From Bacteroidota bacterium (lineage in GTDB: Bacteria > Bacteroidota > Bacteroidia > Bacteroidales > UBA4417): a stretch of 64,000 nucleotides of DNA. The notes under the pieces were generated by a model. That model was not told the DNA's origin and made no database searches. It saw only the letters and a list, made by a program, of their open reading frames with translations. Where the stretch lies: assembly GCA_013376995.1 (NCBI GenBank), contig JACAAZ010000010.1, positions 124,001-188,000 of the forward strand. Direction: 5' to 3'. The first letter of the stretch is position 1; every line of letters starts with the position of its first letter. Positions 34,433-48,193 of this stretch are shown here, in pieces. A program made the position numbers and the translations under genes.

Positions 34433-34441
34433 AAATTCAAT

Positions 34442-34640
34442 GGTCACTCTATGGTCAATCAATTGTTATTCGATTGTCATTTCCGCCTATGGTGAATCAC
34501 TCAATTGTTACACAATTGTCAGTTAGATGATTACCATTTAGTATTAGACAACTGAATGACTACTGAGGACTATTGTATGACCATCGAATAACTACTGAAT
34601 GACTATGGAATGACTATCGAATGACCACCGAATGACCCTC
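34442..34640. repeat. 11-bp tandem units in two opposing arms, copy 1
   Basis: Between two convergent genes. The left arm (34442-34528) is built of degenerate 11-bp units such as GGTCACTCTAT, GGTCAATCAAT and TGTTACACAAT. The right arm (34553-34640) has units of the opposite sense: TGAATGACTAC, CGAATAACTAC, TGAATGACTAT, GGAATGACTAT and CGAATGACCAC. Together they can fold into a long imperfect hairpin. The same family occurs at 46509-46750. It may act as a terminator-like structure for both flanking genes or be a non-coding repeat element. Confidence 0.8.
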
Positions 34641-45545: not shown

Positions 45546-46400
45546 CTATTTTATTCCCGTTATATACTTATATGTCAATAACGTATAAATTAATTTAGAC
45601 GCTAAGAAATCTGGCGACCTGTTTTCTTTTCCAGGTTTGAGTTCTACAACATCAAAACCTACAATATTTACCTTCTCAGAAACCGCCTTTAGGATATCCA
45701 GTACCTGGTACCAGAGTAATCCACCAGGTTCAGGAGTACCGGTAGATGGCATGATAGATGGATCGAATACATCCAGGTCGATGGTGATATACACATTCCT
45801 TGTAAGTTTATTCAGGAACTCAAACATCCAGGTCCGCTGCTCGTGAATATGTGAAGCATAGAATACCCGGTCCGGCTGAATATCTTCCCTCTCTTCAACA
45901 CTCATACTACGAATTCCAACCTGGACTACAGGAGCCACTTCCTTTGCCCGCGCCATAACACAGGCATGATTATTCTTCGAGCCTTCATACTCCTGCCGCA
46001 TATCCGCATGTGCATCCAACTGAAGAATGGTAAGATCATTGAAATTAGCAGCCATTGCTTTTATAGCACCAATACTTACAGAATGCTCCCCCCCAATTAC
46101 GATGGGAAATTTCTTTTTTTTCAGTAACTCTTTTACCCTTTCATTTACAGCTTCCACCATGGCTTCAGGCGAACTGTTCTCAGTAACGGACGACATAGTA
46201 TGTATTCCAACTTTGTGAACCTCACTGTCCGTTTCAACATCATAAACTTCCATATTGGCTGAAGCCTCCAGCAAAGCCTGCGGGCCTTTATCGGCACCTT
46301 TTAGCCAAGTACTTGTACCATCATAAGGAACAGGGACAATTACAACTTTTGAATTCTCAAAATCTGTATACTTCTTGGGTAAATCTCCATATTGCTTCAT
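45546..46400 (-). CDS. speB: Agmatinase / ureohydrolase
   Basis: 284-residue manganese enzyme that splits agmatine into putrescine and urea. The metal ligands are visible: GGEHSVS (first His), LDAHADMR (Asp-His-Asp) and DLDVFDPS (Asp-x-Asp). PSTGTPEPGGL is the family substrate loop. The arginine decarboxylase gene lies upstream on the same strand, so the two make a two-step arginine-to-putrescine route. The 401-base gap between them is filled by a repeat array, unusual for an operon. Arginase or guanidinobutyrase activity is possible but less likely in this context. Confidence 0.93.
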   Translation of the reverse strand: MKQYGDLPKKYTDFENSKVVIVPVPYDGTSTWLKGADKGPQALLEASANMEVYDVETDSEVHKVGIHTMSSVTENSSPEAMVEAVNERVKELLKKKKFPIVIGGEHSVSIGAIKAMAANFNDLTILQLDAHADMRQEYEGSKNNHACVMARAKEVAPVVQVGIRSMSVEEREDIQPDRVFYASHIHEQRTWMFEFLNKLTRNVYITIDLDVFDPSIMPSTGTPEPGGLLWYQVLDILKAVSEKVNIVGFDVVELKPGKENRSPDFLASKLIYTLLTYKYITGIK

Positions 46401-46508
46401 GCAATCCTATATTAAGGTTGTAATGAATAAAATCTTACAGTTGCTAAATTACGATAATTCCCGGATACTGAACGAAGGCGGAGCGCAAAGAGCGCAGAGG
46501 AAAAGGAG

Positions 46509-46750
46509 GGTCATTCAATGGTCACTCGGTGGTCATACAATGGTCACTCAATGGTCACTCGGTGGTCATACAATTGTCACTCGGTGGTCATACAATGGTC
46601 ATACGATGGTCATTCAATAGTCATTCAATTGTTTAACTACATCAAATCAACCGAATGACTATCGAATCACTATCGAATGACTACTGAATGACAACGAATG
46701 ATCCGTCAGCTGACGGAAATGACTACTGGATGACAACGAATGACAACTGA
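46509..46750. repeat. 11-bp tandem units in two opposing arms, copy 2
   Basis: The left arm (46509-46629) is eleven uninterrupted 11-bp units with consensus GGTCAYWCRRT, for example GGTCATTCAAT, GGTCACTCGGT and GGTCATACAAT. A 22-base spacer follows. The right arm (46652-46750) has units of opposite sense, such as CGAATGACTAT, CGAATCACTAT and CGAATGACTAC. The perfect 16-bp palindrome TCCGTCAGCTGACGGA (46702-46717) interrupts the right arm. The array lies between arginine decarboxylase and agmatinase on their shared strand. The plus-strand frame over the left arm is an artefact of the repeat. Confidence 0.88.
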
Positions 46751-46801
46751 TTGACCCCTTCTTGCAATAAGTCCCTCGCCCTATGCGCTATGCCCTAAGC
46801 C

Positions 46802-48193
46802 CTAGTACCCTAGTATCTTCAGCATACTCTTGTGGCTCTGCTCCTTGGCAAAAAGCTTGGTGAAATACTCACCATCTTCATCAAGATCGATGATGATATG
46901 CTTTGGTGCCGGGATCAGGCAATGCTGTATGCCTCCGTATCCTGCGAGAGAATCCTGGTATGCACCTGTATGGAATAATCCGATATAAAGAGGTTCATCA
47001 TCCTCCAACTTCGGGAGAAATATCGCATTGGTATGCGCTTCAGCATTGTAATAATCCTCGCTGTCGCAGGTAAGTCCGCCAAGAAACACCCTTTCATATT
47101 CCTTGTCCCAATGGTTAACAGCAAGCAGGATAAATTTCTGGTTAATAGCCCAGGTATCCGGCAAAGTAGTAATGAAAGAACTATCAATCATGTTCCATAC
47201 CTCCCGGTCATTCTGACGCTTCTGGTCAATGATGGAGAACAGGATAGCCCCGCTCTCACCAACAGTGAATGATCCGAACTCGGTGAAGATGTCTGGCTCA
47301 GGTGTACCGTTGCGCTCGCATATGCTTTTAATCTGTGCAATGATCTCTTCCGCCATGTATTCATAATCATAGTCGAAGTTAAGGGAATTCTTAATAGGGA
47401 AGCCTCCGCCAATGTTCAATGCAGTCAGTTGAGGACAAACAGCCTTCAGTTCACAATAAACATTGACACACTTCGACAATTCATTCCAGTAATAGGCAGA
47501 GTCGCGAATACCGGTATTGATGAAGAAATGCAGCATTTTCAGTTCAAACTTCGGGTTATTCTTTATCTCTTCTTCATAATAGGGAACGATGTCGTTATAC
47601 CGGATTCCCAGGCGGGATGTATAGAAGTCGAACTTGGGCTCTTCCTCCGACGCAATCCTGATCCCGATGCGAATCTTCTTCGTAATGTTGCGGTCATATT
47701 CATCCAGCTCGAACTTATTATCGAGGATGGGAATAACATTCTCAAATCCCTCTTCGATAAGGTTGCAAATACCCTCAATGTATAAGGGACGCTTAAATCC
47801 ATTGCAGACAATGAAAGTACTTTTCGACAATTTCCCGGCTTCGAAAAGGTTTTCAATAATAGGAATATCAAATGCTGAAGAGGTCTCAATATGTACTTCG
47901 TTCTTTAATGCTTCTTCAAGAACAAAGGAGAAATGGGAGCTCTTGGTACAATAGCAATATTGGTAAGCCCCTTTGTACGAAGCCTTTGCCATAGCCACAT
48001 TGAATAATCGTTTGGCTTTCTGGATCTGCTTGCCAATCTTGGGAAGATATGTTATTCTCAAGGGCGTACCGTACTGCTTGATCACCTCCATTAATGGAAG
48101 GTTGTTGAAAAGCAGTTCACCTTCTTCAACTTTGAATTCCTCATTTGGGAAGTCAAAGGTTTGCCCGATCAGGTCAAGGTATTTATTCTTCAT
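46802..48193 (-). CDS. speA: Arginine decarboxylase (PLP, alanine-racemase fold)
   Basis: 463-residue PLP enzyme that makes agmatine from arginine. The PLP-lysine is expected at K84 in YCTKSSH. HFFINTGI, LNIGGGFPI (the glycine loop that holds the PLP phosphate) and the second-subunit active-site motif C376-D-S-E-D are present. It is shorter than the ~630-residue proteobacterial SpeA and matches the compact form found in Bacteroidota. The agmatinase gene downstream supports arginine as substrate; diaminopimelate or ornithine decarboxylase is less likely. A minus-strand TAATTTTG (48216-48223) may be its -7 box. Confidence 0.9.
   Translation of the reverse strand: MKNKYLDLIGQTFDFPNEEFKVEEGELLFNNLPLMEVIKQYGTPLRITYLPKIGKQIQKAKRLFNVAMAKASYKGAYQYCYCTKSSHFSFVLEEALKNEVHIETSSAFDIPIIENLFEAGKLSKSTFIVCNGFKRPLYIEGICNLIEEGFENVIPILDNKFELDEYDRNITKKIRIGIRIASEEEPKFDFYTSRLGIRYNDIVPYYEEEIKNNPKFELKMLHFFINTGIRDSAYYWNELSKCVNVYCELKAVCPQLTALNIGGGFPIKNSLNFDYDYEYMAEEIIAQIKSICERNGTPEPDIFTEFGSFTVGESGAILFSIIDQKRQNDREVWNMIDSSFITTLPDTWAINQKFILLAVNHWDKEYERVFLGGLTCDSEDYYNAEAHTNAIFLPKLEDDEPLYIGLFHTGAYQDSLAGYGGIQHCLIPAPKHIIIDLDEDGEYFTKLFAKEQSHKSMLKILGY

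What the first reader, a model, noticed from the sequence alone, without database searches (positions are those of the whole stretch)
46509..46750. Eleven perfect-length 11-bp tandem units facing an inverted arm
The left arm is eleven contiguous 11-bp units; the right arm has the same motif in reverse. 11 bp is close to one DNA helical turn, so every unit faces the same side of the helix, and the RNA could fold into a hairpin over 100 bp long. It lies between two genes of one pathway on one strand and could uncouple speA from speB or bind a repeat-reading protein.
Basis: seen in the sequence. Interest (0 to 1): 0.6.

Follow-up and report, generated by a model that had tools for sequence, protein, structure and literature searches.

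The report
Dispersed 11-bp intergenic repeat family
The repeats between speA and speB are one of at least 40 copies of an 11-base tandem repeat scattered through the spaces between genes in this bacterium and most of its genus; this copy looks like a recent, probably tolerated insertion rather than a dedicated switch, but the way such arrays point relative to the nearest gene is unusual.

Summary
Eleven 11-bp units (46506-46626, minus strand) face seven to eight inverted units (46653-46755) between speA and speB. The array is not special to this locus. The genome (a Bacteroidales MAG) has 126 exact two-unit hits against 0 for the reversed control, in at least 40 mostly one-armed intergenic arrays. 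Twelve of 15 same-genus genomes carry the unit; it is rare elsewhere in the phylum. None of 15 same-genus speA loci has an array. The core GAATGAC-N-A is nearly invariant; positions 8, 10 and 11 vary. The two arms are less alike than arms of different elements, so the hairpin is probably not maintained. A conserved region just upstream of speB, probably its promoter, lies beyond the array. Best reading: a genus-level minisatellite, closest in kind to the TAACTGA repeats of Beggiatoaceae. Unusual: orientation is tied to gene edges. Units read GAATGAC toward the start codon at 5' edges (35:4 genus-wide); at 3' edges of this genome they read GTCATTC away from the stop (21:2; no bias in relatives). 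The 3' rule is unexplained.

The parts
46506..46626 (-). left arm: 11 head-to-tail 11-bp units, consensus GAATGACCAYY on the minus strand (GGTCATTCAAT on plus)
   Evidence: unit scan; TRF; sequence
46627..46652 (.). spacer between the arms
46653..46755 (+). right arm: 7-8 units of the same motif in inverted orientation, with one 10-bp step and a palindrome inside
46702..46717 (.). 16-bp palindrome TCCGTCAGCTGACGGA interrupting the right arm; variant of a palindrome (TCCGCCAGCTGGCGGA) found 33 times in this genome and in none of 15 same-genus genomes
46441..46465 (-). conserved box upstream of speB (GGGAATTATCGTAATTTAGC in sense), probable speB promoter region, homologous to array-less relatives
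   Evidence: alignment; promoter role inferred
45546..46400 (-). speB, agmatinase/arginase family
   Evidence: PF00491 E 3.9e-71
46802..48193 (-). speA, arginine decarboxylase-like
   Evidence: PF02784 E 6.9e-13; the name speA is inferred from family and neighbourhood
34439..34482 (-). left arm of a second, decayed element of the same family, 6 bp after the stop of a TonB-receptor-like gene
34554..34640 (+). right arm of the second element, 9 bp from the stop of the phosphofructokinase gene (minus strand)

Best explanation
This is one copy of a genus-level dispersed minisatellite: arrays of an 11-bp unit (GAATGAC[C/T/A]A[Y][Y]) that appear in intergenic regions, change length by whole units (replication slippage, inferred), and are found at gene edges in a preferred orientation. 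At speA-speB there is an array at each edge of the spacer, each in its edge-specific orientation, and together they look like a hairpin. Units pointing GAATGAC toward a start codon put TGA in every unit, so all three frames close within 33 nt; the opposite orientation carries ATGs in largely stop-free frames. Purging of the latter near start codons is the simplest cause of the 5' rule (inferred). At speA-speB the array sits between the speA stop and the conserved speB upstream region and probably has little effect, or at most gives speA mRNA a structured 3' tail. Shown: the family, its dispersal, absence at this site in relatives, orientation bias, unit-number variation between sister species. 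Inferred: slippage, selection against the wrong orientation, near-neutral effect here.
For: Genome-wide family: 126 exact hits, 0 control; 395 three-unit hits with up to 3 mismatches, 0 control. Twelve of 15 same-genus genomes positive. Arrays lie in or at the edge of intergenic regions. None of 15 same-genus speA loci, nor the pfkA loci examined, has an array. Orthologous arrays in sister species G002/G013 keep position but differ in unit number, e.g. 3 vs 9. Within-arm similarity is high while the two arms of an element do not match each other specially. Orientation at 5' edges 35:4. Copies lie next to core genes (infC/rplT, speA/speB, an ABC transporter gene), which argues for tolerance.
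Against: The core (positions 1, 4-7, 9) is nearly invariant while 8, 10 and 11 vary in all species, which free drift would not give. Orientation at 3' edges in this genome (21:2; convergent regions 11:0) is not explained by start-codon avoidance. Other repeats in this genome seem to share the polarity.
Confidence: 0.62

Rival explanations
1. The arrays are functional binding sites: a protein reads GAATGAC-N-A about once per helical turn, or its RNA equivalent, and acts as an insulator or transcript-end element at gene edges.
For: Invariant core with degenerate positions 8, 10, 11 in all species; strict 11-bp period; orientation tied to gene edges.
Against: Arrays are mostly not at orthologous genes, have no hits in three of 15 relatives including G014, the closest by pfkA, and vary in number. 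No candidate protein was identified.
Confidence: 0.2
2. The repeats were added to DNA 3' ends (break repair or a telomerase-like reverse transcriptase), so that the same strand always runs 5' to 3' away from each flanking gene; joined ends give the inverted two-arm elements.
For: In G000 23 of 25 informative regions have units pointing outward; all five two-arm regions are '-...+'; GC skew of intergenic edges has the same polarity with arrays masked, 0.165 +/- 0.038 against 0.027 +/- 0.023 in other genera. DRT10 shows that bacterial RTs can make tandem-repeat DNA (PMC12632851).
Against: Array-rich G013 and G003 have no RVT_1 match. The 3' polarity is absent in relatives (8:10). DRT10 cDNA is protein-primed and not described as added to the chromosome.
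Confidence: 0.07
3. The speA-speB element is a long hairpin that terminates or stabilises speA mRNA and uncouples it from speB.
For: Strong predicted fold, z -9.35; position between co-directional genes.
Against: No stem plus U-tract terminator found there; arms do not match each other specially; single-arm arrays predominate; relatives have speA-speB without it.
Confidence: 0.1

Closest known systems
TAACTGA heptamer direct repeats of marine Beggiatoaceae, cyanobacteria and some Bacteroidetes (MacGregor 2015, PMC4679880)
   Same: Short head-to-tail units, many sets per genome, intergenic, patchy across lineages, preferred orientation toward start codons, unit with stop codons, relatives with repeat-free spacers, no known function
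   Different: Unit is 11 bp and unrelated in sequence; degenerate positions inside the unit; arrays at 3' gene edges are also oriented in this genome; inverted two-arm regions and palindrome interruptions
Cyanobacterial STRR (short tandemly repeated repetitive) sequences
   Same: Dispersed intergenic short tandem repeats (general knowledge)
   Different: Heptamers in cyanobacteria; no sequence relation tested
REP/BIME elements with RAYT transposases
   Same: Intergenic, palindromic parts, Y1 transposase genes present in the genus
   Different: The 11-bp unit is a direct repeat, not a 20-40 bp palindrome; Y1_Tnp also occurs in genomes without arrays
DRT10 / telomerase-like tandem-repeat DNA synthesis (PMC12632851)
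   Same: Tandem repeats with a fixed strand polarity
   Different: No reverse transcriptase in array-rich relatives; no template RNA identified

Membership tests
Dispersed intergenic short tandem repeat family (TAACTGA / STRR kind) | many head-to-tail arrays of one short unit across the genome | tested here: met
Dispersed intergenic short tandem repeat family (TAACTGA / STRR kind) | arrays intergenic | tested here: met
Dispersed intergenic short tandem repeat family (TAACTGA / STRR kind) | orientation biased toward start codons | tested here: met
   35:4 at 5' edges
TAACTGA repeats proper | unit sequence TAACTGA | tested here: not met
   unit is GAATGACNANN; same kind, not the same family
Intrinsic (rho-independent) terminator | short GC-rich stem followed by U tract | tested here: not met
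   no site in 46400-46800; the only hit lies inside speA
REP/BIME with RAYT | 20-40 bp palindromic unit | tested here: not met
   unit is an 11-bp direct repeat
REP/BIME with RAYT | linked Y1 transposase that mobilises the unit | tested here: inconclusive
   Y1_Tnp in all 16 genomes regardless of arrays; linkage not tested
Telomerase-like RT product (DRT10) | reverse transcriptase present where repeats are | tested here: not met
   no RVT_1 in G003, G004, G007, G010, G013, all with repeats
Known Rfam RNA | match above gathering score | tested here: not met
   only sub-threshold microRNA-type hits to the hairpin

The most novel reading that the evidence does not exclude
Several unrelated tandem-repeat families in this genome obey one strand-polarity rule relative to gene edges at both 5' and 3' ends, because repeats are added or selected directionally from gene boundaries, a process not described in bacteria as far as I found.
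Probability: 0.1. Interest if true: 0.75.

Novelty: new member of a known kind. Interest (0 to 1): 0.4.

Why it matters
It adds a well-populated 11-bp repeat family, unnamed in the literature I could search, to the few known dispersed tandem-repeat families of bacteria, with sister species in which unit number and position can be compared. The gene-edge polarity gives a testable handle on why such families persist: translation interference, transcript-end effects or directional repair. It may also explain some contig breaks in these MAGs.

Tried and rejected
Hairpin maintained by pairing: arms of one element are less similar than arms of different elements. Telomerase-like RT: no RT in array-rich relatives. 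Intrinsic terminator: none in the array. Rfam: only weak microRNA-type hits. Conserved speA-speB regulatory element: absent in relatives. Codon-bias gene calling was too weak to define flanks, so plain ORFs plus Pfam checks were used. A literature search for the unit sequence gave 7,160 papers by chance matching, none relevant among the 20 listed; other repeat searches found only the Beggiatoaceae paper. Stretches around two Y1 transposases and the RT were fetched but not analysed.

Full report
Observation. The region 46506-46755 holds eleven minus-strand 11-bp units at exact steps and, after a 26-bp spacer, seven to eight inverted units with one 10-bp step and a 16-bp palindrome. It is far above chance (23 two-unit matches in the window, 0.22 expected). 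The flanking genes are an Orn/Arg decarboxylase-family gene and an arginase-family gene, consistent with speA and speB.

Family. The two-unit pattern occurs 126 times in the genome with no hit for the reversed control; three units with up to three mismatches occur 395 times, again with no control hit. In the stretches fetched I counted about 38 arrays of at least four units, nearly all in or at the edge of intergenic regions and most with one orientation only; further arrays lie on C41, C43 and C5. Several contigs end inside arrays, so true sizes are probably underestimated. Twelve of 15 same-genus genomes carry the unit. Three exact units in a row occur in 2 of 395 genomes drawn from the phylum, one of them the window's own. 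Two viral contigs carry short arrays. Named members of the genus include Bacteroidales MAGs such as KR4_bin-0449 and Lentimicrobiaceae DFE_LEN (matched by contig coordinates).

Unit anatomy. Taking units that sit between two exact units, so that the middle unit is not selected for its own sequence, positions 1, 4-7 and 9 are 94-100% constant in G000 and 90-100% in relatives, while position 8 is C/T/A and positions 10 and 11 are mostly C/T. Requiring exact neighbours may still favour well-kept arrays.

Age and site. None of 15 same-genus speA loci has an array, and the shortest spacers in the closest collection hits are 146 bp (L039, L040). About 85 bp upstream of speB align with those spacers, including a box GGGAATTATCGTAATTTAGC, so the array lies between the speA stop and the probable speB promoter. 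The pfkA locus likewise lacks arrays in the relatives examined. In sister species G002 and G013 some arrays are orthologous and differ in unit number.

Hairpin. The RNA fold is strong, but that follows from any inverted pair. Left and right arms of the same element share 7.52 of 11 positions on average, against 8.08 for arms of different elements, while units within an arm are more alike. This argues against selection for pairing; it rests on five elements.

Orientation. In G000, 23 of 25 informative intergenic regions have units pointing outward, that is, GAATGAC read toward the nearest gene (p 1.9e-5). Split by gene end: 5' edges 9:1, 3' edges 21:2. In the other genus members 5' edges are 26:3 but 3' edges 8:10. 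So the start-codon rule is genus-wide and the stop-codon rule is seen only here. G002 and G013 share some loci, so these counts are not fully independent, and gene 5' ends come from plain ORFs. The start-codon rule resembles that of TAACTGA repeats in Beggiatoaceae. A simple cause is that GTCATTC in sense carries ATG in frames with few stops, while GAATGAC in sense carries TGA in every unit (read directly from the sequence; the selection step is inference).

Wider polarity. With arrays masked, GC skew of intergenic left minus right edges is 0.165 +/- 0.038 in unselected G000 stretches and 0.200 +/- 0.062 in unselected same-genus loci, against 0.027 +/- 0.023 in other genera. Other repeat words (ACAAGGGG, GGGAGATG, GCGCATAG) also run away from genes, with small counts and no correction for the many words tested. 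I have no explanation for this that I can support.

Mechanism tests that failed. Reverse transcriptases are missing in array-rich relatives, which speaks against a telomerase-like origin of the kind known from DRT10. Y1 transposases occur with and without arrays. No intrinsic terminator lies in the array.

Verdict. A real dispersed repeat family of a known kind, unnamed in the literature I could search, with an orientation rule that is partly expected and partly unexplained. The speA-speB copy itself is most likely incidental.

Noticed in passing
46702-46717 and 33 places in G000 (e.g. L160:4624, L165:5028): A 16-bp palindrome (TCCGCCAGCTGGCGGA and variants) interrupts the arrays in fixed register, GTCATT|palindrome|TCATTC, as if flanked by a TCATT duplication; the exact form occurs 33 times in this genome and in none of 15 same-genus genomes.
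   Followed up: partly
46778-46804 and other intergenic edges (L139:5151-5311, L140, L169): Other low-complexity repeats (GCCCTATGCGCT, ACAAGGGGAGATGG, CGCCGAACCCTTCAAA, CACGGAACACGG) fill intergenic regions; some seem to share the strand polarity relative to gene edges.
   Followed up: partly
L165:4310-5512: A two-arm array lies between infC-like and rplT genes, 13 bp after the infC-like stop.
   Followed up: no
L231 (viral contig, 38 kb), L230: Short arrays of the unit occur on two viral contigs, a possible route of spread.
   Followed up: no
L197 (G078), L111/L124/L136 (G028): Genomes of other families of the phylum or order carry short arrays of the same unit, one with two arms in the same '-...+' arrangement.
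   Followed up: partly
L265/L275, L255/L272 (G002/G013): In these species the 11-bp units sit inside longer repeats of about 63-64 bp.
   Followed up: no
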